Assembly: GCF_002706425.1 (NCBI RefSeq)
Contig: NZ_CP017713.1
Location: forward strand, 1,612,001 to 1,676,000
Direction: 5' to 3'
Source of the DNA: Loigolactobacillus coryniformis subsp. coryniformis KCTC 3167 = DSM 20001
GTDB taxonomy: Bacteria; Bacillota; Bacilli; Lactobacillales; Lactobacillaceae
Length of the DNA: 64,000 nucleotides
The notes under the pieces are model-generated. The model was not told the origin of the DNA, made no database searches, and saw only the letters and a list, made by a program, of their open reading frames with translations. Made by a program: the position numbers and the translations under genes. Position 1 is the stretch's first letter. Each line of letters begins with the position of its first letter. This document shows positions 1,570 through 64,000 of the stretch, piece after piece.

Positions 1570-2997
1570 ATGCAAAAACAATTGTTAACTAATCTATCTG
1601 CGTGCACCAGTATTTTAGTCGGCAAAAAAGCGAGCGCTGACGGTTCGATCTTTATCGGGCGCAACGAAGACAGTAAAGCCGCGTGGCCCAAACATTTTGT
1701 CAGCCATCCGCGGCAGACCCACACCACGGCGCCGGTTTTTAAATCAAACGACACTGGCTTCACCGTGACCCTGCCCCGGGAACAAGCTAAATATAACGCG
1801 ACGCCGGAATGGACGGCTGAATTTGGCCTGTTCGAAGAAGACGGCTTTAACGAATACGGCGTGGCGATGAGCGCGACTGAAAGTGCCTACGCCAACGAGC
1901 GGGTGCTGGCCTACGATCCGCTAGTCGAAAACGGCATCGCCGAAGAAGCGATGGTCACCGTGGTCCTCCCTTACGTCAAAACCGCGCGCGCCGGCGTGCT
2001 GCGTTTAGGCGAACTGGTTGAACAATATGGTACTGCCGAAAGCAACGGTATTTTATTTGCCGACAACGATGAGGCCTGGTACATGGAAACTGCCACCGGC
2101 CATCATTGGGTCGCGCAACGGATCCCCGATGACGCCTACGCAGTCGTTGCCAACCAGCTGGCGATCCAAGTGATCGACTTTGCCGCTCCGGCCAATTTTT
2201 TAAGTTCCACTGGTATTCAGGAATTTGCGGCGGCACACCACCTCTGGCAGCCGGACACGCCCTTCAATTTCCGGGAAATTTTTGGCACCCACACCGCCAG
2301 CGATTTTGTTTACAATACCCCGCGGGTCTGGTACGGCCAGAAAATTTTAACACCAACGCACAAGCAAAAGCCGCAAAGCGATGACTTACCGTTCATTCAG
2401 CGTGCTGACAAACCGATCACCTTTGAACAGATCGCGCAAATTCTTGGCTCCCACTTTCAAGGGACCAAATACGACCCGGTGGGCAGCGGCAAAGCCAAAA
2501 GCAAACGCAAATTTCGGCCGATCAGCTTGGCCAAGACCCAGGAATCGCACATTTTGCAAATTCGGCCGGCGCTACCCACAGCCCTAGCTGATATTCACTG
2601 GCTGGCCATGGGCGTGACGGCTGAAAGCATCTACGTGCCCTTTTATGCCGGCGCTGATCAAACTCCTGCCGACTACCAGATCGGGGCGCAAACGTACGAT
2701 CCAAAATCCAGTTACTGGCTGTATAAACTTGCGGGTGTGCTTGTTGACAGCCATTATCATGAGTTCAATCAATTGTTAGCCGCGGTCCAAACCGCCACGC
2801 ACACGCAATTGTTGACCCAACTAGCCCAGCACGACATGGCCGCCAAAACCGCCACTGATCTAACGGCCTACTTAAATCAGGCTAACCAAAAACACGCTGA
2901 CTTAGCGCGGGCTAACTTCGAAGCCTTGATTGCCGACATGGTGACCAAAGCCACCGATCTTTCGCCATTGAACTACAACACTGACGAAAACCTGTAA
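1570..2997 (+). CDS. C69 family dipeptidase
   Basis: Cytoplasmic dipeptidase of the C69 (PepD) family, 475 residues. Family members are N-terminal-nucleophile hydrolases: the precursor is cut so that a cysteine becomes residue 1. Here Cys12, in SACTSILVGKKASADGS, is that nucleophile, followed by the conserved FIGRNED stretch. The usual family length is about 470. The enzyme should release amino acids from dipeptides taken up by a proteolytic lactic acid bacterium. The start ATG follows AAAGGAAG with good spacing. No operon partner; the next gene, also on the plus strand, encodes an amino-acid permease. Confidence 0.88.
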   Translation: MQKQLLTNLSACTSILVGKKASADGSIFIGRNEDSKAAWPKHFVSHPRQTHTTAPVFKSNDTGFTVTLPREQAKYNATPEWTAEFGLFEEDGFNEYGVAMSATESAYANERVLAYDPLVENGIAEEAMVTVVLPYVKTARAGVLRLGELVEQYGTAESNGILFADNDEAWYMETATGHHWVAQRIPDDAYAVVANQLAIQVIDFAAPANFLSSTGIQEFAAAHHLWQPDTPFNFREIFGTHTASDFVYNTPRVWYGQKILTPTHKQKPQSDDLPFIQRADKPITFEQIAQILGSHFQGTKYDPVGSGKAKSKRKFRPISLAKTQESHILQIRPALPTALADIHWLAMGVTAESIYVPFYAGADQTPADYQIGAQTYDPKSSYWLYKLAGVLVDSHYHEFNQLLAAVQTATHTQLLTQLAQHDMAAKTATDLTAYLNQANQKHADLARANFEALIADMVTKATDLSPLNYNTDENL

Positions 2998-3055
2998 CAA
3001 ACGAGTGTGACACAAAGCGTCCAGCCTTATGGCACACGTTTTAACGATATCGTTC

Positions 3056-3104
3056 GGAAGTGCAAAAACGGAGTTGGTACATAAACGACTTATGTCACAA
3101 CCCC
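3056..3104. repeat. Family B intergenic hairpin repeat, copy 1
   Basis: Imperfect inverted repeat with arms GGAGTTGGTACATAA and TTATGTCACAACCCC, preceded by GAAGTGCAAAAA. A second copy with the same layout lies at 10531-10576. Read on the minus strand the hairpin is followed by a T-run. Confidence 0.5.
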
Positions 3105-3123
3105 TTGGGCTAAATTATGATCA

Positions 3124-3304
3124 TTAATTGTGAAGTAGAGCCATGTTTCTTGCGGTGACTGAAACGGTTTGAGTTGAAGAAACGCAGTTGCGGGCCTATG
3201 CAACTACGTTTCTTGATTTCGCCACAAGAATGGCATCGCCCGTAACATCAAGAAGTTTATTAGCGATTTAGGCTAATAAACTTTACCTTAATTGTGAAGT
3301 AGAG
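3124..3304. repeat. Family C structured element flanked by a 17-bp direct repeat
   Basis: The 17-bp sequence TTAATTGTGAAGTAGAG occurs at 3124-3140 and again at 3288-3304, immediately before the permease ribosome site. The 147 bp between contain three inverted repeats, including a perfect stem AAGTTTATTAGC/GCTAATAAACTT and an imperfect GAAACGCAGTTGC/GCAACTACGTTTC. The blocks GCCATGTTTCTTGCGG, CACAAGAATGG and CATCAAG recur in the same order, reversed, in the element at 55.1-55.3 kb. It looks like a small inserted element in the leader of the permease gene. Confidence 0.55.
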
Positions 3305-3314
3305 GAAATTATAA

Positions 3315-4817
3315 ATGGAAAAACAAAAGAAAATCACCGTGATCGGCTTGATCTTAATGATCTTTGGCTCGATCTTCGGTTTTGCTAACACCACTGTTGC
3401 CTATTACCTAATGGGTTACGGTGGCATTATTTGGTACCTTTTTGCGGCAATTTTATTCTTTTTACCATCGTCATTAATGTTCGCCGAGTACGGTTCTAGT
3501 TTCAAAGAAGTCCACGGCGGCATTTATTCCTGGCTGGCCGAATCGATCGGCGAGCGGCCAGCCTTTATTGGCACGTTTATCTGGCTGGCTTCGTGGATCG
3601 TCTGGATGGTATCGACGGCGTCTAAAGTGTGGATCCCTTTTTCCACCTTTGTTTTTGGCCATGATCAAACGCAGACGTGGTCGTTTTTCGGGCTGACTCC
3701 GACGGCGACGATCGGCTTGCTGGGCATTTTATTCTTCCTATTGATCACCTTGCTGGCCACCCACGGCGTGCAACGGATCTCGCGGATCGCCTCATTTGGT
3801 GGTTTTTTGATCGCCTTATTGAACGTCGCTTTTATTTTGATCAGCTTGCTCGTACTGTTTAAAAACGGCCTCCACCTTGCGCAACCGGTTCAAGGGCTGC
3901 ATAGTTTTGTGTCTTCGCCGAATGCTGATTACCACAGTTTGATCGGAATGCTATCCTTTGTTGTTTTCGCAGTCTTTGCTTACGGCGGGATGGAAACGAT
4001 GGGCGGGGTCACTGATAGCATGGAAAAACCAGAAAAGACTTTCCCGAAAGGCTTGATCATCGCGACCGTTTTGATCGCGATCAGTTATGCGTTGTCGATC
4101 TTTATTTGGGGCATCTCCGCTAATTGGCAACAAGTTTTGAACAATAAAACGACTAACCTCGGTAATATTACTTATGTTTTAATGGATAATCTCGGTTATT
4201 ACTTTGGCCAAAGCTTCGGTTTTTCTTCGGCTACCGCACATTTGATTGGCGTTTGGTTCGCCCGGGTCACTGGTTTTGCTATGTTCTTCAGTTATCTCGG
4301 CGCCTTTTTCGTATTGATCTATTCGCCGCTGAAATCCTTCGTCCTCGGGACGCCAAAAGAACTCTGGCCCAAAGGTTTCGCCAGCACCAACCAAGCCGGC
4401 ATGCCGGTCAAAGCCATGTGGACCCAAGCTATTTTCGTTTCGATTCTTATTTTCATCGTTGCTTTTGGCGGCCAGGATGCGCAGGTTTTCTATAACGTTT
4501 TGACGCAAATGGCCAACATTTCCACGACTTTACCGTATTTGTTCCTGGTCACCGCATTTCCTTACTTCAAGCGGCGCCAAGACCTGCAACGGCCATTTGA
4601 AATCTACACCAACCAAACGTGGACTTGGGTCATTACGATCTTAGTCGACCTGGTGCTGGTGTTCGGTATTTTATTCACGATCGTTCAGCCGTTGTTGGAA
4701 GGTCAATATTTAGATGCTTTCGAAATGGTCATCGGGCCGATTGTCTTTGGCTTGATCGCTTGGCTAATGTACAATCATTATGATCACAAAATACATTTGC
4801 GGCCAGCTGCTAAATAA
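3315..4817 (+). CDS. APC-superfamily amino-acid permease, YjeM type
   Basis: Twelve-segment amino-acid transporter of the APC superfamily, 500 residues, of the group that contains YjeM and glutamate/GABA antiporters. The first segment has the APC-type glycine-rich break GSIFGFAN, and HGGIYSWLAESIG matches the conserved loop after segment two. The substrate cannot be assigned. The ATG follows GAGG after a structured leader (family C element). A strong bidirectional terminator follows. A paralogue of similar length is encoded at 6945-8441 on the other strand; the two share FYLMGY/YYLMGY, AEYG and GGIYSW blocks, so they are a divergent pair rather than a recent duplication. Confidence 0.85.
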   Translation: MEKQKKITVIGLILMIFGSIFGFANTTVAYYLMGYGGIIWYLFAAILFFLPSSLMFAEYGSSFKEVHGGIYSWLAESIGERPAFIGTFIWLASWIVWMVSTASKVWIPFSTFVFGHDQTQTWSFFGLTPTATIGLLGILFFLLITLLATHGVQRISRIASFGGFLIALLNVAFILISLLVLFKNGLHLAQPVQGLHSFVSSPNADYHSLIGMLSFVVFAVFAYGGMETMGGVTDSMEKPEKTFPKGLIIATVLIAISYALSIFIWGISANWQQVLNNKTTNLGNITYVLMDNLGYYFGQSFGFSSATAHLIGVWFARVTGFAMFFSYLGAFFVLIYSPLKSFVLGTPKELWPKGFASTNQAGMPVKAMWTQAIFVSILIFIVAFGGQDAQVFYNVLTQMANISTTLPYLFLVTAFPYFKRRQDLQRPFEIYTNQTWTWVITILVDLVLVFGILFTIVQPLLEGQYLDAFEMVIGPIVFGLIAWLMYNHYDHKIHLRPAAK

Positions 4818-4855: not shown

Positions 4856-6841
4856 TTAATACAAGGTTTCAACGTAAGGTTTCATGGCTGTGACCACAGC
4901 TTCACTACCAGTACCTTCCATCATTGCCACCATTAAGTAAGAATTATTGTCAGCATCCGCAGCCATTAAGAAGCCGTTTTGTTCACCATCGGTATCTTGT
5001 TTTTGCTTTAATTCTGCGGTACCCGTTTTAGCGGCAATATTGTGGCCACTGATTGCTAAATCATGCGCGGTTCCTTGTGCGTCAGCGACAACCTGGACTA
5101 ACGCCTGCTCAACTGCTGTCGCACTTGCTTTTTTCAGCACTGTTTGCTGTTTAGCCGTTTGATTCAGTAGTAACGTTGGCAACTGCATGGCGCCCGCATT
5201 AGTCACCGCACTATACATCATGGCTTGTTGAATCGGTGATAACAACAGTTCGCCCTGACCGTAAGCAGTATCAGCTAAAAGAATCTGACTGGCTAGTTTA
5301 CCGTTACTGGAAATTTGGGCATTATTCATGGTCAAAGGTAAATCCGTTTTGGCCTTAAAAAATGGTTGCAGACCTTTTAAATAAGCTGAGCTGCCCATCT
5401 GCAAACCAACTTGAGCAAACCAAATATTGTCCGAATTGACTAATGCTTGAGTCATGTTTTCACTAGCAGCATCGGTCACCCGTGTCACTTGATAATTACC
5501 CCAGCTGCTGTCTTTTTGCCACTTCAATCCACTGATTGATTTAGTTGTGTCAGTGGTGATCGTCCCGTTATCCAAGGCGATTCCTGCAGTCAGCATTTTA
5601 AAAGTTGATCCTGGTGCATACCGCTGGGTAAAGCGGCTCAAAAATGGCTGATCCGCATTTTTAGCATATTTATTATAATCCGTCTGGCTGATGCCAGTGG
5701 CAAACAAGTTAGGATCATAGCTAGGTGAGCTAACCAAAGTCAACAACTGACCATTCCGTGGATCCATGGTGACTACCGCGCCTTTTTTATCGGCTAATTG
5801 TTGGTACGCTTTGACCTGTTTCGTCCGATCAATCGTTAGTTTGATCGTTTTACCATCGTGTTTTTTAGTTTTTAACAACGTCCGGCTAACGGTATCACCG
5901 TTGTTGATGGTGATCGTGCCGCCATCTTGTGCTTGTAATTGCTTGTCGTAGTAGCGCTCTAAGCCCGTTTTACCGATCGTATCGCCGGTATGCAACTCGG
6001 GATGTTTTTTCAGATCAGCCGCTGTGACTTCACCGACATAACCGATCAATTGTGCACTAGCTGCACCTGTAGGGTAAGTCCGCGCTGAAACTGCACGATA
6101 AGTGACCCCCGTCAAACTAGGCTTGGTCGTCACTGTTTTGATCGGCACAAAACTATCGTCAGTGACCCACTGTTGTTGCAGTGATTGCTTCAAAGTCGCC
6201 ACACTAACATCAAATTGTTGACTAATTTTACTTAAACTAGTGTTGCGCGTGGTGCCACTACCTAATTGGCTCGGCACCATGCCGGCTTGGGTCACTTGAC
6301 CATCGACAGCTAAAGCTTGGCCATTACGATCAACGATTTTTCCCCGTTCGCCTTGTTGCCACTGCAATTGAACCGTATCAGTCCCATTCATATGCGGAAA
6401 AAGCAACGCTGGCGTCCACAGTACGCGCCATTTCCCCTTAACTAACTGAACCGTTGCTTGATAATGCTTAACTTTCAAAGCACCAATCATTGTTTGCATG
6501 TTCAAATTAAAGGTCATCCGATAACGTTTAGCGCTTTGCTGTGTCACCTTTAACTGCTTAACTTGCATGTTACTGGCCCCAATCTGACCAAAAACAGCCA
6601 CATTGCGGGCAACGACTTTTTTAGCGGTATATTGGTAATCGCCACCACTTAATTGATTTTTGTCCACTTGGTCCATCATTTTGGTGAAATCTTGTTGGCT
6701 AAACGCTTTTGTATAAGTAGCGGCCACCTTTTCTACAGCTGCAGTAGTTTGTTGCCGTTGGTGCCAATGATAATAATAAAAGCCACCCCCACCAAGTAAA
6801 ATAGCGGCAATTAAGCCGAGCAATAAGTATTTTTTACGCAT
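4856..6841 (-). CDS. Class B penicillin-binding protein with MecA_N-like domain
   Basis: Peptidoglycan transpeptidase anchored by one N-terminal membrane segment (residues about 4-24), then an NTF2-like MecA_N domain (about 35-150), a PBP dimerisation domain (about 165-320) and a transpeptidase domain. The catalytic motifs are intact: S412-T-F-K, S470-D-N and K605-T-G-T. Length (661) suits low-affinity-type class B PBPs such as Enterococcus Pbp5 and Bacillus PbpC. The frame opens at 6865, but the ATG at 6841 (MRKKYLL) has GAGG seven bases upstream and is preferred. It cross-links peptidoglycan outside the membrane; whether it lowers beta-lactam affinity cannot be read from sequence. Confidence 0.9.
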   Translation of the reverse strand: MRKKYLLLGLIAAILLGGGGFYYYHWHQRQQTTAAVEKVAATYTKAFSQQDFTKMMDQVDKNQLSGGDYQYTAKKVVARNVAVFGQIGASNMQVKQLKVTQQSAKRYRMTFNLNMQTMIGALKVKHYQATVQLVKGKWRVLWTPALLFPHMNGTDTVQLQWQQGERGKIVDRNGQALAVDGQVTQAGMVPSQLGSGTTRNTSLSKISQQFDVSVATLKQSLQQQWVTDDSFVPIKTVTTKPSLTGVTYRAVSARTYPTGAASAQLIGYVGEVTAADLKKHPELHTGDTIGKTGLERYYDKQLQAQDGGTITINNGDTVSRTLLKTKKHDGKTIKLTIDRTKQVKAYQQLADKKGAVVTMDPRNGQLLTLVSSPSYDPNLFATGISQTDYNKYAKNADQPFLSRFTQRYAPGSTFKMLTAGIALDNGTITTDTTKSISGLKWQKDSSWGNYQVTRVTDAASENMTQALVNSDNIWFAQVGLQMGSSAYLKGLQPFFKAKTDLPLTMNNAQISSNGKLASQILLADTAYGQGELLLSPIQQAMMYSAVTNAGAMQLPTLLLNQTAKQQTVLKKASATAVEQALVQVVADAQGTAHDLAISGHNIAAKTGTAELKQKQDTDGEQNGFLMAADADNNSYLMVAMMEGTGSEAVVTAMKPYVETLY

Positions 6842-11315: not shown

Positions 11316-13570
11316 TATGATAACTTCCTTTCGGGGAGGGTTAGTTTTTTGATTTTAAAACGGTTCAAACGTAAAGCGTTGAGTACGACGGTAACTGAGC
11401 TAAAGCCCATTGCGCCGGCAGCGATCATTGGGTTCAATAAGGGACCGCCAAATAAGTATAGCAGACCTAAAGCTACCGGAATACCTAATACATTGTAGAA
11501 AAACGCCCAGAATAGATTTTCTTTGATATTGATCATGGTTTTGTGGCTTAATTCGCGCGCTGTGACCAACGAACTCAAATCAGAATTCATCAGGATCACT
11601 TCAGCTGAATCAACCGCCACGTCAGTGCCATTACCAATGGCAACGCCGATCTCAGCTTGAACCAACGCCGGTGCGTCGTTGATGCCATCGCCGACCATCG
11701 CCACTTTATGCCCTTGTTGCTGCAAAGCTTTGATCGCATCGGCTTTGCCTTCTGGTAATACGTCGCTGATCACTTGTTTGATGCCCGCTTGGGCCGCGAT
11801 CGCCTCTGCAGTCGGACGATTGTCACCAGTCAACATCACTACGTCTACACCTAAATGTTGTAGTCGTTTGATTGCTGCTGGACTATCTGCTTTGATTGGA
11901 TCAGTCACCCCGAGCACGCCAACTAATTTTTGTGCTTGGGCCACGTAGATCAAGGTTTTACCGGCTGTACTTAAGGCAGCGGCCTGATCAAACAACGGAC
12001 TAGCGGCAACGTTTTGTTGCTGCATTAGCTTAGCATTACCCAGTGCCACCGTCGTTCCAGCGATTTGACCCGTAACGCCTAAACCAGGTAGCGTCGTAAA
12101 ATTAGTAACGCTTTGGCGCTGGGCAGCGGCAGCGTCGATCACCGCACTAGCCAAAGGATGATCCGAATAATATTCCAAACTAGCAGCTAATTGCAAAACT
12201 TGATTACGCTCACCGTTTGTAATCACATCAGTGACTTGTGGTTGACCTTGTGTAATGGTCCCTGTTTTGTCCAAAACGACAGTGTCCAGTTGTGCCAATT
12301 GTTCAAGCGCAGCACCATTTTTAAACAGTACGCCGTGTTTGGCGCCTAGGCCAGTGCCGACCATGATTGCAGTCGGTGTCGCCAAACCTAGAGCACAGGG
12401 ACAAGCGATCACTAGTACGGATACGAAGATCGTCAGTGAAAAAGCCAGTGACTGCCCGCTAATTAACCAAGCTAAGCCGCCAACTAACGCGATCGCCATG
12501 ATCACAGGAACAAAAACACCAGAGATTTTATCCGCTAAGCGGGCGATCGGCGCTTTGGAACCTTGGGCGTCAGAAACTAATTTGACGATATGGGCCAAAG
12601 CAGTATCATTGCCCACATGCGTAGCTTGGTAAGTGATCTGACCATTTTTATTGGTACTGCCACCGATGACGCGGTCGCCGCTCATTTTGGTGATTGGCAA
12701 ACTTTCACCAGTTAGCATCGATTCATCCACCGTGGTTTGGCCAGTTAAAACTTGGCCATCCACTGGGATCGTTTGGCCCGATTTGACCAAAATTGTATCA
12801 CCAACTTGGAGCTTATTCACTGGCACCGACTGTACCGTTTCATCCGCATTGACGCGGTCGGCCATTTTCGGTACCAAAGTCAATAATGAAGTCATCGATG
12901 TGGTCGTCTTTTGCTTGGACAGTGCCTCAAAATATTTACCCAGCATGATCAGCGCCAAGATCGTAGCGCTGGCTTCGAAGTATAACGGCTGCTGCGTGCC
13001 CGTTGTCCAGATCAACATCGTATTGACCAAACTGTACAAAAAGGCAGTTCCAGTGCCGACAAACACTAACGAATCCATGTTAGGATGACCTTTAAATAAG
13101 GTGGTCGCCCCTTTAATTAAGTAATCACGGCCCAGCCACAGTACTGGCAAAGCTAAAATCAATTCAGCGAGCGACGCTGTTGCCGGCGCCATCATTGGAT
13201 TTAACCACATCACGGTCGGTAAATGTAGATCCCCGGCCATCGCCACGTACATTAATACGGCCGCCCCAATTAGCGCACCGATCATAGCGTTACGCTGTTG
13301 TGTTAACTTGACGGCTTTTTCATCCCGCTCTGCCGCCACGTTTTCCTGGGTCAACTCTTGGGCTAACTCGGCGCCATAACCAGCGTTGACCACCGCTTGG
13401 ATGACCTCTGCTGGTGCTAAAGCCTGATCGGCGAATTCCACTTTCATTCGTTCCGCTGCCAAGTTAACGTTAGCCACCGTCACACCAGGTAACTTGCTGA
13501 CCGCTTTTTCAATGGTCTGCGCACAACTGGCACAAACCATGCCGTCAATTTTAAATTGTTCAGCTGTCAT
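11315..13570 (-). CDS. copA: Copper-exporting P1B-type ATPase
   Basis: Membrane P-type ATPase of 751 residues. It begins with one metal-binding domain (GMVCASC, Cys13 and Cys16), then eight hydrophobic segments with the CPC ion-binding motif in VIACPCALGLATP, the phosphorylation site DKTGT and the hinge MVGDGINDAP. This set is typical of Cu(I)-exporting CopA. It is first in a two-gene operon with copZ. Two cop boxes lie in its promoter region. No copY gene is adjacent; the upstream neighbour is an acetyltransferase on the other strand. Confidence 0.94.
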   Translation of the reverse strand: MTAEQFKIDGMVCASCAQTIEKAVSKLPGVTVANVNLAAERMKVEFADQALAPAEVIQAVVNAGYGAELAQELTQENVAAERDEKAVKLTQQRNAMIGALIGAAVLMYVAMAGDLHLPTVMWLNPMMAPATASLAELILALPVLWLGRDYLIKGATTLFKGHPNMDSLVFVGTGTAFLYSLVNTMLIWTTGTQQPLYFEASATILALIMLGKYFEALSKQKTTTSMTSLLTLVPKMADRVNADETVQSVPVNKLQVGDTILVKSGQTIPVDGQVLTGQTTVDESMLTGESLPITKMSGDRVIGGSTNKNGQITYQATHVGNDTALAHIVKLVSDAQGSKAPIARLADKISGVFVPVIMAIALVGGLAWLISGQSLAFSLTIFVSVLVIACPCALGLATPTAIMVGTGLGAKHGVLFKNGAALEQLAQLDTVVLDKTGTITQGQPQVTDVITNGERNQVLQLAASLEYYSDHPLASAVIDAAAAQRQSVTNFTTLPGLGVTGQIAGTTVALGNAKLMQQQNVAASPLFDQAAALSTAGKTLIYVAQAQKLVGVLGVTDPIKADSPAAIKRLQHLGVDVVMLTGDNRPTAEAIAAQAGIKQVISDVLPEGKADAIKALQQQGHKVAMVGDGINDAPALVQAEIGVAIGNGTDVAVDSAEVILMNSDLSSLVTARELSHKTMINIKENLFWAFFYNVLGIPVALGLLYLFGGPLLNPMIAAGAMGFSSVTVVLNALRLNRFKIKKLTLPERKLS

Positions 13571-56966: not shown

Positions 56967-58784
56967 CTAACTTAAAATCAGCTTATTTGTCATCAATTTC
57001 GGAATATCTGTTGTTTTTAAATTCCCGGATGATACTTTATTGGCTAAACGCAATAATACCTCAGTTGTCATCGCACCGCCATCCATATTTGTTTGGTTAT
57101 GCGTGCGAGTTAATTGATCCAGATACTTACCTGTAAAGCCACCTGCTACCCATAAATAATATATATTATTTTTTAACAGCGTCGCTGGAAAGGCCTCCCA
57201 CCAGCGGTTTGGTGTTACATTCTGGTTTTTATCAATCACATCTGTAATATAATCAACCATTTCACGTTGTTGATCCACTGGGATGTTATAACCATTCGAA
57301 TAAGCTTTCGTATCCAGAATAATTCCATAAGTAGAGTTATAATAAACTGCTCCATCTGGCCTATTTTGTCCGCCAAGATGTTCTCCATTCAATTCAAAGT
57401 ACTTTTTAAAAATTTCAACTACTTTTACTTCAAACAAAGTAGCTTCAAGGGTGTTTTGAGAACGTGTAGTTGCCTTTTTCCACGACATTTCAATAACTTC
57501 TATATCGGCAGGATCAATTTCTGTAAGTTCATTGAGTAGCGTATTTTTAGTTTTTTGTAAGGCGGCATCCTTTAGTACCGGTGTCATATTAACACTTGGT
57601 ACTTCAAAATTATTAACGCTATCTCTAAAATAGATATTCCCACCATCTCTATCAATGTTTAGACCAAATCGAATTAATCCTTGAATATCAGCTTGTAGAA
57701 CACCCATACCGTCAAATAATCCGCGTTCTTTAAGATATTCACTTAACGCCGATATCTTTGTAATTTGCTGCATCCCTTTAAGCGTGTATGCACGACGAAT
57801 TTTTACATAATTTTTATTAGTGACCTTAGTTGCCAACATATGCCAGGAAACGTACTTCTCTATAGCATGGTGGCGAGAAAAACCCTTGGCCAGCTTCAAA
57901 GCTCGCCGACCCCTCATACCATTAATTTGATAAGCATGCGGTGTATATTCTTCATCACCATCGACTACTCGAACTAATTTACGTGACTTGATCAGATCAA
58001 GAGCAATTAACCATCTAGAAATAGTTCGTGCCCATTTATCTGCAGACCCTTCTACATCACTACGAACATCGCCCTTTTTATTTTGTGGTGTATCATGTAA
58101 ATATTCAAACCATTCGGATTCCTCAAAAGAAGTAAAACCTGGTTCCCCAGAAAATCCTAACTCATGACCAATTTTAAATTTCGATAACAAAACAGTAGTG
58201 TCTTGATTATCTGATTTTACATTATTTAACAAATATAAGAACCGTACGGCTGGTGGATAAGCCATAACTACGGGAACTAGAAATGCTTTTTCTTCAGCGC
58301 TTAAAATGTATGTTTTCTCCTTACCATTCTTCCAAGTTCCATCTGGTTGTTGTGCAAATCTCTTGCCTAGCTCTGTAATGCTTAATAAATCAGTATCTTC
58401 ACTTACTTCAAAGAAATGTAATGTCAACGCCCAATTCAAGAATCCTTCTGCCGTCCATTCATCTGTCCATGCCTTTTCTTTCTTATTATCACCACCTGAC
58501 AATTGAGCTAAACCAAATGCTACTTGATGCTTTCTGTCCTTTACTCCCGTATAATTCTTTGGAAAAACAGCCTTACCTTTCATTTGGTTATAAGTTATCT
58601 GAATCTCAGGCCGTGTAAGCCTATTCCTTAAAGCATTTCTCTGCACACTATCTTCAATATAGTCTAATCCTGTATCTAATAAGTACGTATAATAAGGTGA
58701 ATCTCTCACCAATATTTGAACAGTTCTTTTTAATTTACCAAAATTGGATGGATTCTGAATCCATCCAAATTCATGTGCGCCCAT
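56967..58784 (-). CDS. FokI-type IIS restriction endonuclease (R1)
   Basis: 605 residues. The N-terminal DNA-recognition part resembles FokI (FGWIQNPSNFGKLKRTVQ, then DEWTAEGFLNWALTL, LGFSGEPGFTSF and GSADKWARTISRWL). The C-terminal part (about 425-600) is a FokI cleavage domain with the catalytic set PDG (Asp477), Asp491 and Lys493 in ILDTKAY, followed by RWWEAFP and LTRTHNQTN. At the two positions that form the dimer salt bridge in FokI (Asp483/Arg487) it has Arg507 and Asp511, a swap. ATG 58784 follows GGGAG at good spacing; the frame opens at 58835 with an unrelated hydrophobic stretch. Divergent from the methyltransferase gene. Confidence 0.92.
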   Translation of the reverse strand: MGAHEFGWIQNPSNFGKLKRTVQILVRDSPYYTYLLDTGLDYIEDSVQRNALRNRLTRPEIQITYNQMKGKAVFPKNYTGVKDRKHQVAFGLAQLSGGDNKKEKAWTDEWTAEGFLNWALTLHFFEVSEDTDLLSITELGKRFAQQPDGTWKNGKEKTYILSAEEKAFLVPVVMAYPPAVRFLYLLNNVKSDNQDTTVLLSKFKIGHELGFSGEPGFTSFEESEWFEYLHDTPQNKKGDVRSDVEGSADKWARTISRWLIALDLIKSRKLVRVVDGDEEYTPHAYQINGMRGRRALKLAKGFSRHHAIEKYVSWHMLATKVTNKNYVKIRRAYTLKGMQQITKISALSEYLKERGLFDGMGVLQADIQGLIRFGLNIDRDGGNIYFRDSVNNFEVPSVNMTPVLKDAALQKTKNTLLNELTEIDPADIEVIEMSWKKATTRSQNTLEATLFEVKVVEIFKKYFELNGEHLGGQNRPDGAVYYNSTYGIILDTKAYSNGYNIPVDQQREMVDYITDVIDKNQNVTPNRWWEAFPATLLKNNIYYLWVAGGFTGKYLDQLTRTHNQTNMDGGAMTTEVLLRLANKVSSGNLKTTDIPKLMTNKLILS

Positions 58785-58887
58785 GTTAACCACTCCCAAT
58801 AAGATTATGATAATTGTAACGCATTGAAATATCAAAATCAGTACACTGTCAGAACAATATGCACATTAAAATAAATAATCGTGTAAT

Positions 58888-58951
58888 GCGTATATTAATA
58901 AATAGATACGCCATATAGTATTTGCAGAAGAATGGCTACTAATGCTATACT
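58888..58951 (+). promoter_or_regulatory. Divergent R1/methyltransferase control region
   Basis: TTGCAG (58922-58927) and TATACT (58946-58951), 18 bases apart, form a promoter for the methyltransferase. An inverted repeat GCGTAT/ATACGC (58888-58911) lies between it and R1 and could be an operator. No controller protein gene is seen. Confidence 0.5.
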
Positions 58952-58983
58952 AGCGTTGATAGGATGTAATAGGATGTGAGATA

Positions 58984-60948
58984 ATGAGATTTATCGGAAG
59001 CAAAGCCCATCTACTAAAAAAAATAGATGAAATATTATTACCAAATTTAACAGGAAAAGAAAAAACGTTTGTGGATTTATTTGCTGGTTCAAATAGTGTT
59101 GCACAATATTATAAAAGAAGATACGCAGTAACTAGTAATGATCTTTTAGCATTTTCAAATTGTATTGCTAAAGGAACAATTGAACTTAATACAACCCCTA
59201 CTTTTGGCACCCTTAGAGGAGTTGGAATTACTGATCCCTTAAAGTATTTACAATCTACAGACCTAAGCAAATATGATGGTGACTTTATAACAAAAGAATA
59301 CTCTCCTGCTGGACCAGATGGACGTATGTATTTCACTATTGAAAATGCCAAACGTATTGACTTTATCAGAAATACCATTGATAAATGGCACACAAATAGC
59401 TTGATCAACGAGCAGGAATTCTACTATATATTAAGCATCTTACTACAGGCAGTTCCATTTGTGTCAAACATAACCGGAACATACGGTGCCTATTTAAAAC
59501 ATTGGGATAAACGATCCTTTAAAAAAATTGAGTTAATTCCTACGCCAATAATTAATAATCACCACAAAAATAAAGCACTTAATATGGACGCAGTCATATT
59601 GAGTAAACAAATAAGTGGCGATATTTTATATATTGACACGCCATATAATAATCGTCAATATGCACCAAATTACCATATTTTAGAAACAATCGCACTAAAC
59701 GACCATCCTACTGTACACGGTGTAACCGGACAACGTGACAATCGGGAAAAGCGTTCTGATTTTGCAATGAAATCACGTGCAAAACAAGCAATGATAAAAT
59801 TACTAACCAATTTAAATTTTTCTCACGTTGTGGTCAGTTATTCAACTGATGGTATCATCCCTGAAGATGAGTTAAAACAACTTATTACAGACATTGCATT
59901 AGATGGACATGTGATTGAAAAGCGAATTCCTTATCGGAAATATAAATCTAAAATAATCAACCCTGATGATGAACTGTATGAACTACTTTTTTATTTTCAA
60001 CCAGCACATGCCCTACTAAAGAAAAAAAGGGCTATTGTAAAATCAACCAATATACAAACCAGCCTATTTAAAGATACCGCAACCATTAGTACAGTACCTA
60101 GTAGTGGATTCATTAAAAGTCCGTTAAACTATATTGGTGGAAAATACAAACTACTGCCACAACTATTTCAATATCTACCTAAACACGCGGATAAGTTTAT
60201 TGATCTTTTTAGCGGTGGTGGGAATGTCGGCATTAACGTCAATGCCGACACAGTTTTTTTCAATGATTTAAATAGTAAAATTAATGAGCTTTTTCGGTAT
60301 TTTCAAGGTCAAGACCCAAATACTTTAATCACAAAAATACAAAAACGTATAACTGATTATGATCTATCTAAAACGAATGAAAAAAATTTTTTGAAATTTC
60401 GTGCTGATTATAATGCACATCAAAATCCATTAGACCTATATGTACTTGCGGCTTATAGCTTTAACTATCAATTCCGCTTTAATAACAGCATGGAATATAA
60501 TAATCCATTTGGTCGAAATCGTAGTCATTTTTCAGAAAGCATGGCAAATCACTTGATCCGATTCGTATCCAAACTAAATATTCTTGATGCACATTTCACG
60601 GATTATTACTTTACGGACTTTGACATGAGTACTCTTACAAAGAAGTCGTTTGTTTATGCTGATCCGCCATATTTAATTACTACAGGTTCATACAATGATG
60701 GCAATCGTGGATTTAAAAATTGGACATCCACGCAAGAAAAAGAACTATATCAATTATTAGACGACATTAATGATCGCGGTATACATTTTGCATTAAGCAA
60801 CGTTACTGATCATAAAGGTAAATCAAATGATATTTTGAAAGAATGGATTAAAAAATATCACGTACACGTTCTAAATTATAATTACAAAAATTCATCACAC
60901 AATACCACAGCACTTGATAGTCGTGAAATACTAGTTACAAATTATTAA
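58984..60948 (+). CDS. Fused double adenine-N6 methyltransferase (M.FokI-like)
   Basis: 654 residues made of two complete D12/Dam-class methyltransferases in one chain, as in M.FokI, where each half methylates one strand of the asymmetric site. First half: SAM motif VDLFAGS (30-36) and catalytic DTPYNNRQY (218-226). Second half, from about 375: SPLNYIGGKYKLLPQL, SAM motif IDLFSGGG (406-413) and DPPY (560-563). Both halves look active (DTPY variants occur in this group). It should protect the site(s) cut by the flanking nucleases. The downstream nuclease gene starts 71 bases later. Confidence 0.92.
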   Translation: MRFIGSKAHLLKKIDEILLPNLTGKEKTFVDLFAGSNSVAQYYKRRYAVTSNDLLAFSNCIAKGTIELNTTPTFGTLRGVGITDPLKYLQSTDLSKYDGDFITKEYSPAGPDGRMYFTIENAKRIDFIRNTIDKWHTNSLINEQEFYYILSILLQAVPFVSNITGTYGAYLKHWDKRSFKKIELIPTPIINNHHKNKALNMDAVILSKQISGDILYIDTPYNNRQYAPNYHILETIALNDHPTVHGVTGQRDNREKRSDFAMKSRAKQAMIKLLTNLNFSHVVVSYSTDGIIPEDELKQLITDIALDGHVIEKRIPYRKYKSKIINPDDELYELLFYFQPAHALLKKKRAIVKSTNIQTSLFKDTATISTVPSSGFIKSPLNYIGGKYKLLPQLFQYLPKHADKFIDLFSGGGNVGINVNADTVFFNDLNSKINELFRYFQGQDPNTLITKIQKRITDYDLSKTNEKNFLKFRADYNAHQNPLDLYVLAAYSFNYQFRFNNSMEYNNPFGRNRSHFSESMANHLIRFVSKLNILDAHFTDYYFTDFDMSTLTKKSFVYADPPYLITTGSYNDGNRGFKNWTSTQEKELYQLLDDINDRGIHFALSNVTDHKGKSNDILKEWIKKYHVHVLNYNYKNSSHNTTALDSREILVTNY

Positions 60949-60976
60949 GAATAAAAAAGTTAACAATACTTCAGTC

Positions 60977-60985
60977 TGATATAAT
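60977..60985 (+). promoter_or_regulatory. Extended -10 promoter before the second nuclease gene
   Basis: TGATATAAT is a consensus extended -10 in the 71-base gap between methyltransferase and R2. R2 could thus be transcribed on its own, after or beside the methyltransferase. Confidence 0.5.
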
Positions 60986-61019
60986 TAGTTTATTAACTCA
61001 TAGGATTGAAGGCCTTTTA

Positions 61020-62933
61020 ATGACTATTACTATAAATTATTATCCTAAAAAAACAAAACGTTTTTCCATCGGTTTAGGGCAAGATGTCGGTAGTTTACGC
61101 AGTATGGTAAATATGTTACAAGTATTTGTAATTAATTCCCCTATCCAGAAGAAATTAATTAAGCGTCTTTCTTGGCGTATGAGCGATCAAACTCTGCATA
61201 AAAAATATTTAAAAATATTATCATCTAGCCCTGTTCGAGCGACAGTAAAAGATTTAAGCATAGAATATAAAAAACTAAAGCATACTAATGCATCACCAAA
61301 TATACGTGGAATTCTACAAGGTATTATGGATGGCCAGAAATATGCCAGAGATCGTAACAACAACTTATTATTAGATCCGGAAGGAAAACCTTATAAACTC
61401 TCTATGCGTAGTTGGGCAATTCGTAATTTCATATCATTGGCCATTTCACTTGGCTTTTTAAACTGGAATCGAGTTAACGGTGATATTACATTAACAGCTT
61501 TTGGCTACCAACTAGCAACAGCAAAACATTTTTCAACAGAAGAATTAACAAACGACGAAACTAAGTTATTTACGCGAGCATTTATTTCGCTTCCTTATGC
61601 TGTTGGATTTATGCGTACACTTAAAAATACACCAAATGGATTGAATAAATTCGAACTAGGTGAGAAATTTGGCTTTGCTGGTGAAGAAGGATTCGTCAGT
61701 TTTGGCTCAAAAATATTTATAGACGCACTGAAAGAAGCTTATCGTAAAAATGATGAAAAATTGGCTAAGACAATAAATTCTAATTGGGAAAGTACTAGTG
61801 ATAAATATATTCGGAGTCTTGCCTCTTTATTGGGCAAACTTAACTTTGTCCATACCTCTAAACAAAAAATTAAATATAAAGATGAAGAACAAAAAGACAG
61901 ATCTTTTAAAATCAGTATATATTCTCTAACCGGGCTTGGAAGACAAGCTCTTGGATACGCTCTAGGACTGTCTAGTCATCCACGTTCAAAAAAAAACATT
62001 ATATGGGATATGTTAGCTACCAAAGGTAGTCAACAAACGTACATCCGTACAGTCAGGGCCTTAATTCTAAAAGAGTTAAGTGAATCAAGATATCTAACTG
62101 CAGAATTATTAGCAACTCGTATTAATAATAATCGTATTAATAGCAAGAGAGTTTTAAACGGTGAGTTAGTAACTGCTGATGAAATTATTGATCACATTAC
62201 TGGTCTCAATGGCATTGGTTTAGAAATCACAAGTAGCCATCGTGGTTTTATACTTAAAGATAAAATCAGTGATTTTGAAATTCCAGTTTTGGCAACTGAC
62301 TTGCCACATAAGGACAATGTAATAAAGCAACAAGACGAGTTACGGCCAATGCTCAAACATGTAAATCATAAATATTTACAACTTGTTGAGCTTGCATTCG
62401 AATCATCTCGAAATAGTGAATATTCACAGTTTGAAACACTTACTATGGAATTAGTATTAAAATACCTTGACTTTTCAGGTAAGTCATTAGGTGGTGCAAA
62501 TAAACCGGATGGCATTGCTTGGGATCCTCTCGGTAACTTTTTAATCTTTGATACTAAGGCCTATAAACATGGATATACCTTATCTAACAATACTGATAGG
62601 GTTGCACGTTATATTAACGATGTGCGCGATAAAGATATACAAAGAATATCTCGTTGGTGGCAAAGTATTCCAACATATATTGATGTAAAAAATAAATTAC
62701 AATTCGTATATATTTCTGGCAGCTTTACAGGTCACTATTTACGACTTCTAAATGACTTACGATCTCGTACTAGAGCAAAAGGTGGTTTGGTGACTGTCGA
62801 AAAATTACTATTAACGACTGAGCGCTACTTAGCCGAAGCTGATTACACTCATAAAGAACTATTTGACGATTGGATGGATGATAATATTGAACATGAAGAG
62901 TATTTTTATTCCCTACAGGATGCACTAAAATAG
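61020..62933 (+). CDS. FokI-type IIS restriction endonuclease, second and divergent (R2)
   Basis: 637 residues with the same architecture as R1 but low overall similarity. Shared landmarks of the recognition part are AISLGFLNW, FGFAGEEGFVSF and STSDKYIRSLASLLGKL. The cleavage domain (about 445-605) has PDG (Asp497), Asp511 and Lys513 in IFDTKAY, and RWWQSIP. At the FokI dimer positions it keeps Asp526 and Arg530. The N-terminal 60 residues lack the FGWxQNP helix of R1 and FokI, so the DNA-reading part may differ. A C-terminal acidic extension of about 30 residues is extra. AAGG precedes the ATG. Confidence 0.88.
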   Translation: MTITINYYPKKTKRFSIGLGQDVGSLRSMVNMLQVFVINSPIQKKLIKRLSWRMSDQTLHKKYLKILSSSPVRATVKDLSIEYKKLKHTNASPNIRGILQGIMDGQKYARDRNNNLLLDPEGKPYKLSMRSWAIRNFISLAISLGFLNWNRVNGDITLTAFGYQLATAKHFSTEELTNDETKLFTRAFISLPYAVGFMRTLKNTPNGLNKFELGEKFGFAGEEGFVSFGSKIFIDALKEAYRKNDEKLAKTINSNWESTSDKYIRSLASLLGKLNFVHTSKQKIKYKDEEQKDRSFKISIYSLTGLGRQALGYALGLSSHPRSKKNIIWDMLATKGSQQTYIRTVRALILKELSESRYLTAELLATRINNNRINSKRVLNGELVTADEIIDHITGLNGIGLEITSSHRGFILKDKISDFEIPVLATDLPHKDNVIKQQDELRPMLKHVNHKYLQLVELAFESSRNSEYSQFETLTMELVLKYLDFSGKSLGGANKPDGIAWDPLGNFLIFDTKAYKHGYTLSNNTDRVARYINDVRDKDIQRISRWWQSIPTYIDVKNKLQFVYISGSFTGHYLRLLNDLRSRTRAKGGLVTVEKLLLTTERYLAEADYTHKELFDDWMDDNIEHEEYFYSLQDALK

Positions 62934-63001
62934 CACTGGAATTAATAAAAAAGATCATTAATCAAATGCTGAACTTACTTAATATAATCGAGGTCCCCCA
63001 C

Positions 63002-63418
63002 ATGACTAATTTCACCGTCAACCTAACACCTGGCAACACCTATACCAACAAAGAACTGTCTGCCGCTTTCAACGTCAGTAATATGGGCGGTATGCGTTAC
63101 TCAAAAAAAAATAACGCGCTAGTTCTGATCTCCGACCACACCAAAGGTTACGACGACCACCGCGAGCACGATATTCTCTACTATACTGGTATGGGTAAAT
63201 ATGGCGATCAATCGCTGGACTTCGGTCAAAACAAACGACTGCAAAGTGTTTCAATTGCTACTGCCACCAATATTTATCTGTTTGAAGTGTTGAAGAAGAC
63301 GGAATACATTTATCGCGGGCCAGTCACTCTTTGTCAGGAACCCTTTCAAGAACAACAGCTTGATTTTGACGAAAAACCGCGCAAAGTTTGGATTTTCCCG
63401 TTAAAAGTTAATCAGTAA
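63002..63418 (+). CDS. Orphan SRA/YDG-like modified-DNA-binding domain protein
   Basis: 138 residues. YTNKELSAAFNVSNMGGMRYS, DHTKGYDDH and YYTGMGKYGDQSLDFGQNK (quoted in pieces) match the N-terminal reader domain of a group of HNH restriction enzymes thought to bind modified cytosine (SRA/YDG-like). Those enzymes carry a C-terminal HNH nuclease; here the protein ends after the reader domain. It may be a regulator or a recognition subunit for the McrC-type nuclease next to it. ATG 63002 follows GAGG; the longer frame from 62966 has no ribosome site. Confidence 0.65.
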   Translation: MTNFTVNLTPGNTYTNKELSAAFNVSNMGGMRYSKKNNALVLISDHTKGYDDHREHDILYYTGMGKYGDQSLDFGQNKRLQSVSIATATNIYLFEVLKKTEYIYRGPVTLCQEPFQEQQLDFDEKPRKVWIFPLKVNQ

Positions 63419-63496: not shown

Positions 63497-64000
63497 CTAA
63501 TTCAGAATCGTCTGCTTAAAAATTGCCTCATTTTGCGTCATGGCCATTTTAAATTCACCATAATCTTCAATATCATAGGGAATTTTTAGCCCACATTTAA
63601 TCAGCAGAATATCAGAACGCGCCACGACATTATCATCATAAGTCGAACCACTATTCAAGAACAGCTTCAAATCGTTAGTCTCGCTACTTTCTGGATACAG
63701 ATAGAACCCCTTCTTAGCATCAAATCTGAACATATAAGCTAGAACTTGCAAGTAGTCTTTATTACCAATATTATTCTGGGGTTTATATTTCGTATCAGCG
63801 ATAACCCGTGACGTCGAATTTTGGCTAATAAAATCGGGATAGATCAAACCAATTTGCCCACCATCATCCTTATTAAATAGTTCTTGGGCACCCTCGCCAC
63901 CTTTATTTCGTGGATGGTGGAACGAATCGCCGATTAACAAATTAACGTATTCTTCCCATAACCAGGCACCATCAAACAAAATACCTTGAACCTGATGAAC
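63497..64000 (-). CDS. McrC-type nuclease subunit, partial (runs off the window)
   Basis: C-terminal 168 codons of a protein whose frame is still open at the window edge. YPDFIS and VIADTKYK form a PD-(D/E)xK nuclease core, and the start WLWEEYVNLLI with NKDYLQVLAYMFRF is typical of McrC-like proteins of the LlaJI/McrBC type. McrC is the nuclease partner of the GTPase McrB in type IV restriction of modified DNA; an mcrB gene would be expected upstream on the minus strand, outside the window. Confidence 0.75.
   Translation of the reverse strand, partial: VHQVQGILFDGAWLWEEYVNLLIGDSFHHPRNKGGEGAQELFNKDDGGQIGLIYPDFISQNSTSRVIADTKYKPQNNIGNKDYLQVLAYMFRFDAKKGFYLYPESSETNDLKLFLNSGSTYDDNVVARSDILLIKCGLKIPYDIEDYGEFKMAMTQNEAIFKQTILN

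What the first reader, a model, noticed from the sequence alone, without database searches (positions are those of the whole stretch)
56967..62933. One fused methyltransferase shared by two different FokI-type endonucleases
The sequence shows a single M.FokI-like double adenine methyltransferase with a full-length FokI homologue on each side: R1 divergent at 56967-58784, R2 downstream at 61020-62933. Known FokI-like systems have one nuclease. Both nucleases keep the complete PD-D-K active site, so neither looks like a dead copy. One methyltransferase can protect only the site read by its two halves, so both nucleases must read the same or overlapping sites, or one must be blocked in another way. 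Possible advantages are cleavage at two distances from the site, backup against phage inhibitors, or sensing different methylation states of the two strands. I know of no described system of this form.
Basis: partly seen in the sequence, partly recalled or inferred. Interest (0 to 1): 0.88.

Follow-up and report, generated by a model that had tools for sequence, protein, structure and literature searches.

The report
Two FokI-type nucleases, one shared methylase
A bacterium, probably a lactic-acid bacterium, carries two distantly related, apparently intact DNA-cutting enzymes on either side of one protective methylase; sequence evidence suggests both read the same site, so this looks like a rare doubled version of a known defence system, possibly caught while one cutter replaces the other.

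Summary
One intact M.FokI-type double adenine methylase (58984-60948) lies between two full-length FokI homologues (R1 58784-56967, minus; R2 61020-62933, plus) that are only 24% identical. Each has the FokI domains and the E-D-D-K catalytic residues. The genome's only D12-class methylase matches are the two halves of M.

Both nucleases probably read GGATG. Core recognition residues are kept. Methylases of R1-only and R2-only systems are interleaved on the M tree. A tandem GGATG-N5-GGATG sits directly before the M start codon in 19 of 21 M loci, with either nuclease type.

A relative (G370) has intact R2 downstream of M and a C-terminal R1-type stub upstream. This suggests nuclease exchange around a stable M, with R1-M-R2 as intermediate. 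None of the 21 other loci with a full-length R has a second one.

The pair that bonds FokI dimers (D483/R487) is charge-reversed in R1 (R/D) and standard in R2 (D/R). Homodimers are expected and R1:R2 heterodimers disfavoured.

Verdict: a real, unusual R-M-R variant of the FokI kind. My paper searches showed none like it, but REBASE and most subscription papers could not be searched. Cleavage, motif and regulation are inferred.

The parts
56967..58784 (-). R1, FokI-type endonuclease, 605 aa; catalytic E452, D477, D491, K493; dimer pair R507/D511 (FokI positions 483/487)
58744..58768 (-). Inverted pair of GGATG sites inside the R1 5' coding region (codons for GWIQNPS), an 11-pair terminator-like hairpin; not seen in the 13 other R1-type genes read
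58807..58835 (-). Promoter-like match for R1 (TTGATA, 17, TATCAT); consensus match only, such matches are no more frequent than in shuffles
58962..58976 (+). Tandem cognate sites GGATG-N5-GGATG just before the M start codon; the second box overlaps a Shine-Dalgarno-like AGGATGTGA
58984..60948 (+). M, fused double adenine methylase of M.FokI type, 654 aa; DTPY (N half, residues 218-221) and DPPY (C half, 560-563)
61020..62933 (+). R2, second FokI-type endonuclease, 637 aa; catalytic E472, D497, D511, K513; dimer pair D526/R530

Best explanation
This is a FokI-type (Type IIS) restriction-modification locus in which one methylase protects GGATG/CATCC on both strands and two separately descended isospecific nucleases, R1 and R2, each cut unprotected GGATG at a distance. 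Each nuclease is expected to act as its own homodimer, because their dimer-bonding charge pairs are opposite. The R1-M-R2 layout most likely arose when a second nuclease joined a methylase that already protected its site. Such a gain should cost little, because the host is already methylated, and it is the natural intermediate by which one nuclease type replaces the other. M itself is probably autoregulated through the two cognate sites at its translation start. Shown by sequence: the anatomy, intact active sites, shared core recognition residues, interleaved M phylogeny, the R1-type stub in G370, and the conserved tandem sites. Inferred: the GGATG specificity of the two window nucleases, cleavage, homodimerisation, autoregulation, and the direction of evolution.
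For: 1) Both R are complete FokI homologues with all catalytic residues. 2) In the 26-row nuclease alignment, E220, D224, K225 and R228 (FokI numbers) are identical in the 24 rows that cover them, and Q12 and W105 in the 23 rows that cover them, both window nucleases included (that these contact bases is recalled from the FokI-DNA structure). 3) Methylases of R2-type systems do not form a clade: holding them together lowers lnL by 37-45 in three groupings, AU p 0.002-0.006; holding four R1-type ones together lowers it by 34, p 0.007 (15 rows; groups set by nuclease type, but after I had seen a first tree). win_M groups with G103 (R2 only) and Weissella (R1 only), 95/95. So one methylase lineage serves both nuclease types. 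4) GGATG-N5-GGATG begins 20-24 nt before the M start codon in 19 of 21 loci, of R1 and R2 type alike, including L072/G896 whose R is 67% identical to FokI (GGATG); box columns 2.0 bits against a mean of 0.31 for 56 columns upstream. The pattern occurs 19 times in the 335 kb of those 21 sequences, one for each of the 19 loci that have it before M. 5) G370 (L044) has intact R2 downstream of M and, upstream of M, a C-terminal R1-type remnant (open frame of 96 aa, 92 matched; 108 residues by tblastn, with one stop inside), nearest in sequence to the nucleases of G158, L. paracasei and G021. 6) FokI 483/487 are D/R in 21 of 26 rows and R/D in 5 of 26, never mixed; window R1 is R/D and R2 is D/R. 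D483 and R487 bond across the FokI dimer, and single swaps stop homodimers (PMC8470269, PMC3789796, passages). 7) No other D12 methylase match in the genome.
Against: R2 and its kin differ from FokI at D1 positions (N13D, P14V, no R in column 79), so R2 might read a subset or variant of GGATG. R2's D3 Pfam match is under its cut-off and its phmmer match to FokI leaves out the first 127 residues. Only one genome has both nucleases intact, so stable co-operation and a passing stage cannot be told apart. GGATG is not depleted in the window (121 sites, 110 expected from base composition). The tandem boxes overlap the ribosome-binding site, so part of their conservation may serve translation. They are absent from L063/L079 (one sequence found twice) and from the fetched stretches of L015, L016 and L027, which also have FokI-like nucleases or a piece of one. 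The charge-reversed pair also occurs in single-nuclease Weissella and in the broken G347 locus, so it was not evolved for this pairing.
Confidence: 0.62

Rival explanations
1. Obligate heterodimer (Type IIT-like): R1 and R2 are two subunits of one enzyme, each cutting one strand.
For: Heterodimeric enzymes with asymmetric sites exist (BbvCI, Bpu10I, BtsI, BsrDI, BspD6I; PMC4081073 passages). Both genes flank the same M.
Against: Each R is a complete recognition-plus-cleavage protein, and each type is found alone with M in other loci. The 483/487 charges would repel in R1:R2 and attract in R1:R1 and R2:R2 (inferred). G370 keeps R2 with only a stub of an R1-type gene.
Confidence: 0.06
2. Different but nested specificities: M protects a short site (for example GATG or GGATG), R1 reads GGATG and R2 a longer or altered version of it.
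For: The six R2-type rows that cover these columns share D13 and V14 where FokI has N13 and P14, and have no R in column 79; these lie in D1 of the recognition half (their role recalled). The D1 Pfam match of R2 is weak (1.6e-06). A fused methylase with the shorter site GATG/CATC is on record, MhoVII, though no FokI-like catalytic core could be identified in its nuclease (PMC12898733 passages).
Against: Tandem GGATG precedes M in 6 of 6 loci whose only full-length or near-full-length nuclease is R2-type (L044, L045, L046, L048, L052, L056). The D2 core is identical in both.
Confidence: 0.17
3. Stable, selected co-operation: two isospecific nucleases kept for advantage (two cleavage distances, resistance to phage inhibitors, dosage).
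For: Both genes intact; opposite dimer charges would let both work side by side.
Against: 0 of 21 other loci with a full-length R hold two, and 0 of 7 other genomes of the genus have any PF09254 match. Decay of one copy is seen in G370. The charge reversal is also found without an R2 (Weissella, G347).
Confidence: 0.2
4. One nuclease is silent or inactive despite an intact reading frame; the locus is an ordinary one-nuclease system plus a fresh fossil.
For: R1 has an inverted-repeat, terminator-like hairpin within its first codons; R1 is divergent and would need its own promoter, whereas R2 follows M by 71 nt.
Against: All catalytic and core residues kept in both; no stop or frameshift in either.
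Confidence: 0.2

Closest known systems
FokI R-M system (R.FokI + M.FokI, GGATG 9/13)
   Same: Fused double adenine methylase and a D1-D2-D3-cleavage nuclease; R1 is 34.8% and R2 28.7% identical to FokI. FokI's fused methylase and 9/13 cleavage: PMC4081073 passages.
   Different: FokI has one nuclease; here there are two of separate descent around one M, and one carries the reversed dimer charge pair.
StsI R-M system (GGATG 10/14; all recalled, paper not held)
   Same: An isospecific FokI relative with a fused methylase, which shows that two diverged nucleases can share GGATG.
   Different: One nuclease; I could not compare its sequence, so whether R1 or R2 is StsI-like is open.
Type IIT and other two-gene nucleases (BbvCI, BtsI, BsrDI, BspD6I; LlaJI R1/R2)
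   Same: Two restriction genes beside the methylase function(s).
   Different: Those are subunits of one enzyme (PMC4081073 passages; for LlaJI both are required in vivo, PMC1459862 passages); here each gene is a complete nuclease.
CfrBI, LlaDII and AhdI promoter-methylation control
   Same: Cognate sites in the control region of the M gene (PMC12707154 and PMC3874152 passages).
   Different: Here the sites are in tandem, 10 bp apart, at the translation start rather than in the promoter, and conserved across a family; regulation untested.

Membership tests
FokI-type Type IIS R-M system | Nuclease with FokI D1, D2, D3 and C-terminal cleavage domain | tested here: met
   R2 D3 match is under the Pfam cut-off
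FokI-type Type IIS R-M system | Catalytic PD-D-K residues intact | tested here: met
   E425, D450, D467, K469 in R1 and R2
FokI-type Type IIS R-M system | Methylase with two adenine-methylase halves, one for each strand | tested here: met
   two D12 stretches, DTPY and DPPY invariant in 7 of 7 aligned rows; strand assignment not tested
FokI-type Type IIS R-M system | Recognition of GGATG | tested here: inconclusive
   core residues and conserved tandem GGATG favour it; no biochemistry or methylome
FokI-type Type IIS R-M system | Cleavage outside the site at fixed distance | not testable with these tools
   needs purified enzymes
FokI-type Type IIS R-M system | A single nuclease gene | tested here: not met
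   two full-length nuclease genes; held to be a variant of the kind, since each R with M would meet the rest
Type IIT heterodimeric nuclease | Two different subunits, both needed for cutting both strands | tested here: inconclusive
   each type occurs alone with M elsewhere and the charges predict homodimers; not assayed
M gene controlled by methylation of its own sites (CfrBI/LlaDII-like) | Cognate site in the M control region | tested here: met
   19 of 21 M loci, if GGATG is the cognate site
M gene controlled by methylation of its own sites (CfrBI/LlaDII-like) | Methylation state changes M expression | not testable with these tools
   needs reporter assay

The most novel reading that the evidence does not exclude
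A natural pair of mutually insulated FokI nucleases: two isospecific enzymes in one cell that cannot cross-dimerise because one carries the reversed 483/487 charge pair, both governed by one methylase whose gene senses its own methylation through a conserved tandem GGATG. Nuclease turnover around a stable methylase-plus-operator core would then be how this family evolves.
Probability: 0.35. Interest if true: 0.75.

Novelty: new variant of a known kind. Interest (0 to 1): 0.58.

Why it matters
It offers a direct view of how a restriction system can change its nuclease without killing the host: a second isospecific nuclease should cost little while the methylase stays. It also gives natural FokI cleavage domains with a swapped dimer code, which engineers had made by mutation (D483R, R487D) for zinc-finger and TALE nucleases. 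And the tandem cognate sites before M make autoregulation of FokI-family methylases directly testable.

Tried and rejected
Second intact R-M-R locus: looked for with PF09254 in 397 family, 8 genus, 395 order, 398 class and 398 phylum genomes (own genome included in each; 9, 1, 5, 4 and 3 with a match) and in four further genera (2 of 30, 1 of 12, 1 of 8, 1 of 19). None found beyond the G370 remnant. Of the weak matches, G658 (L066) has only a weak nuclease match and no M match; for G789, G1151 and G1445 only short loci came with the search (L069-L071) and I did not look for M there. The larger draws are samples, not whole groups.

Phage records: no match for R2; R1 was not searched there. Viral contigs with the R2-type alignment: 91 pattern matches, none a relative; with the R1-type alignment: 5 loci, one nuclease each.

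With 14 fixed bases in so large a collection I took the matches for mostly chance and did not examine them.

R1 hairpin as a family feature: rejected. Of the 13 other R1-type genes read, one (G158) also has the GGA codon that makes GGATG, and none has the inverted partner.

Site avoidance: no depletion of GGATG in the window; uninformative.

Naming the host: 25 kb of the window matched only two tiny stretches in plasmids; no help.

Rows dropped: L077 (near copy of L076; it has the tandem sites) and L057 (truncated M) from the M-upstream count; L063 (long branch) and L050 (broken) from the second M tree; from the R tree, the broken or truncated L050, L051, L056, L058 and L065, the piece L027, and the later-fetched L075-L079. 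The M genes of L075-L079 are in no tree. L079 repeats L063.

Literature: the StsI, LlaDII and CfrBI papers are not held. Searches for FokI with StsI gave 0 papers. Searches for a two-nuclease FokI system, M.FokI or a natural reversed dimer pair showed nothing of this kind in their listings (20 of 33, 16 of 16 and 1 of 1 papers listed).
Full report
Anatomy. The window lies at 1612001-1676000 of a 2.95-Mb single-contig genome. Its restriction genes match best to records of Lactobacillaceae (5 of 8 plasmid records), but such genes move, so the host group is an inference. R1 (58784-56967, minus, 605 aa), M (58984-60948, plus, 654 aa) and R2 (61020-62933, plus, 637 aa) are intact reading frames. 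Gaps are 199 nt between the divergent R1 and M, 71 nt between M and R2, and 32 nt between R2 and a small SRA-like gene. The genes are AT-rich (32-37% GC) against 44% for the window, which fits acquisition from elsewhere.

What the nucleases are. Both hit all four FokI Pfam domains (R2's D3 under its cut-off), one PADLOC restriction model almost end to end, and FokI alone among solved chains at E up to 0.1 (for R2 only residues 128-602). Predicted models of both match FokI along their length by Foldseek, with TM-scores of 0.52-0.61. They are 24% identical to each other, 34.8% (R1) and 28.7% (R2) to FokI. In a tree of 19 nucleases R1 pairs with a Weissella plasmid enzyme (100/100) on the FokI side, and R2 sits in a distinct clade with G103, G370 and G215 (100/100) that joins L. 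helveticus and G036 (100/98). They are therefore not recent duplicates. Catalytic E425, D450, D467 and K469 (FokI numbers) are present in both; over the family D450 is E in one of 26 rows (L016).

Do they read the same site? Three lines say so. First, E220, D224, K225 and R228 (24 rows that cover them) and Q12 and W105 (23 rows) are identical throughout the 26-row alignment. That these make or flank base contacts in the FokI-DNA complex is recalled, not looked up. R1 also keeps N13 and R79, while R2 and its kin have D13, V14 and no R in column 79, which leaves room for a shifted or longer R2 site. Second, on the M tree methylases of R1-only and R2-only systems are interleaved: win_M, G103 (R2) and Weissella (R1) form one group (95/95), and G158, G021, L. 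paracasei (R1) with G370 and G215 (R2) another (94/93). AU tests reject trees that hold the R2-partner methylases together (three groupings, p 0.0018 to 0.0060) and one that holds four R1-partner methylases together (p 0.0075). The groups were defined by nuclease type, but after I had seen the first tree, so the p values may be too small. Third, directly before the M start codon stands GGATG-N5-GGATG.

The tandem sites. In 19 of 21 M loci the two GGATG boxes stand exactly 10 bp apart, the first beginning 20-24 nt before the start codon. The ten box columns carry 2.0 bits each; the 56 columns from -60 to -5 average 0.31, and columns next to the boxes are conserved in part. Within 60 nt of M no other 5-mer is repeated this way except frames that overlap GGATG. 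In the 335 kb of these 21 sequences the pattern occurs 19 times, one for each of the 19 loci that have it before M. The two exceptions, L063 and L079, have the same sequence in the nuclease and the same layout of separate M1 and M2. None of the 31 more distant methylase loci shows it in the stretch fetched; three of them (L015, L016, L027) have FokI-like nucleases or a piece of one. Of 21 nuclease genes, read over the 90 nt before their conserved N-terminal glycine, none has the tandem; one (G036) has a single GGATG. Six of 6 loci with R2-type as the only full or near-full nuclease, and the locus nearest to FokI itself (L072, R 67% identical to FokI), have it. The second box overlaps a Shine-Dalgarno-like AGGATGTGA, so translation may add to its conservation, but this does not explain the first box or the invariant T. 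Control of M by methylation of its own sites is known for CfrBI, LlaDII and AhdI (passages of PMC12707154 and PMC3874152). I infer that FokI-family methylases sense their own methylation here; this is untested. In the whole genome the pattern occurs 7 times, once at M, against 1 for the reversed control pattern.

Turnover. Gene order around M is fluid: M-R2 in G103, G215 and G036; M-R1 in Weissella; R1-M in G021, G158 and L. paracasei; convergent in Lactococcus and G551. In G370, R2 is intact downstream of M, and a C-terminal R1-type remnant (open frame of 96 aa; 108 residues by tblastn, with one stop inside) lies upstream of M in the same direction, in the place that R1 holds in G021, G158 and L. 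paracasei, and closest to their nucleases (46-55% identity). This is what an R1-M-R2 state would leave after R1 decays. The window locus is such a state with both still intact. Among the 21 other loci with a full-length R that I read (L015, L016, L044-L049, L052-L055, L063, L064, L072, L073, L075-L079; L079 repeats L063, L077 nearly repeats L076) none has a second full-length one. Flanks were limited in some, for example L075 (8.2 kb).

Dimer code. FokI cuts when two DNA-bound monomers pair their cleavage domains (PMC10201449 passages). D483 of one interacts with R487 of the other; D483R or R487D alone stops homodimers (PMC8470269 and PMC3789796 passages). In 26 aligned rows (one nuclease twice, two Helicobacter rows) the pair is D/R in 21 and R/D in 5, with no mixed row. 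R/D occurs in window R1, its tree neighbour Weissella, the broken G347 gene (which matches window R1 best), and two Helicobacter rows. Window R1 is R507/D511 and R2 is D526/R530. In an R1:R2 dimer like charges would face each other. I infer homodimers only. Since Weissella has the reversed pair without an R2, the reversal was not evolved for this pairing but may have made it tolerable.

Protection. PF02086 has two matches in the genome, the two halves of M, so no second methylase of this class protects R1's or R2's site separately.

Judgement. My best account is two isospecific nucleases over one self-regulated methylase, most likely a stage in nuclease exchange (0.62). The main doubts are the exact site of R2 and whether both are expressed. 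Novelty: a new variant of a known kind. The listings of my paper searches show no such locus, but most subscription papers and REBASE are outside that library.

Noticed in passing
window 58962-58976 and 19 of 21 related M loci: Conserved tandem GGATG-N5-GGATG at the start of FokI-family methylase genes, a candidate methylation-sensing operator.
   Followed up: yes
window 58744-58768: Perfect inverted GGATG pair (11-pair hairpin, T-rich tail) inside the first codons of R1, seen in none of the 13 other R1-type genes read.
   Followed up: partly
window 62966-63418 and 63497-64000, continuing in L074 598-3910: A weak SRA-domain protein 32 nt after R2, then a convergent McrC-like and AAA (McrB-like) pair: apparently a Type IV restriction system beside the Type II one, so the locus is a small defence island before a PTS/GH1 sugar operon.
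   Followed up: partly
L044 (G370) 11770-12096: C-terminal R1-type nuclease remnant upstream of M beside an intact R2; the same contig has IS elements and an EF-G-like GTPase (2003-3937) that looks like a ribosomal-protection protein.
   Followed up: partly
L065 (G491) 5827-6598: Convergent C-terminal fragments of M and an R1-type nuclease: a decayed system.
   Followed up: no
L058 and seven similar Staphylococcus plasmid hits: A truncated FokI-type gene, mostly the recognition part (about 310 aa), followed in L058 by an IS257-like transposase; 8 of 13 plasmid hits for R1 cover the same part, of which I looked at L058 only.
   Followed up: no
L015, L027 (Helicobacter): FokI-like nucleases with the reversed R/D dimer pair, an apparently independent charge swap.
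   Followed up: partly
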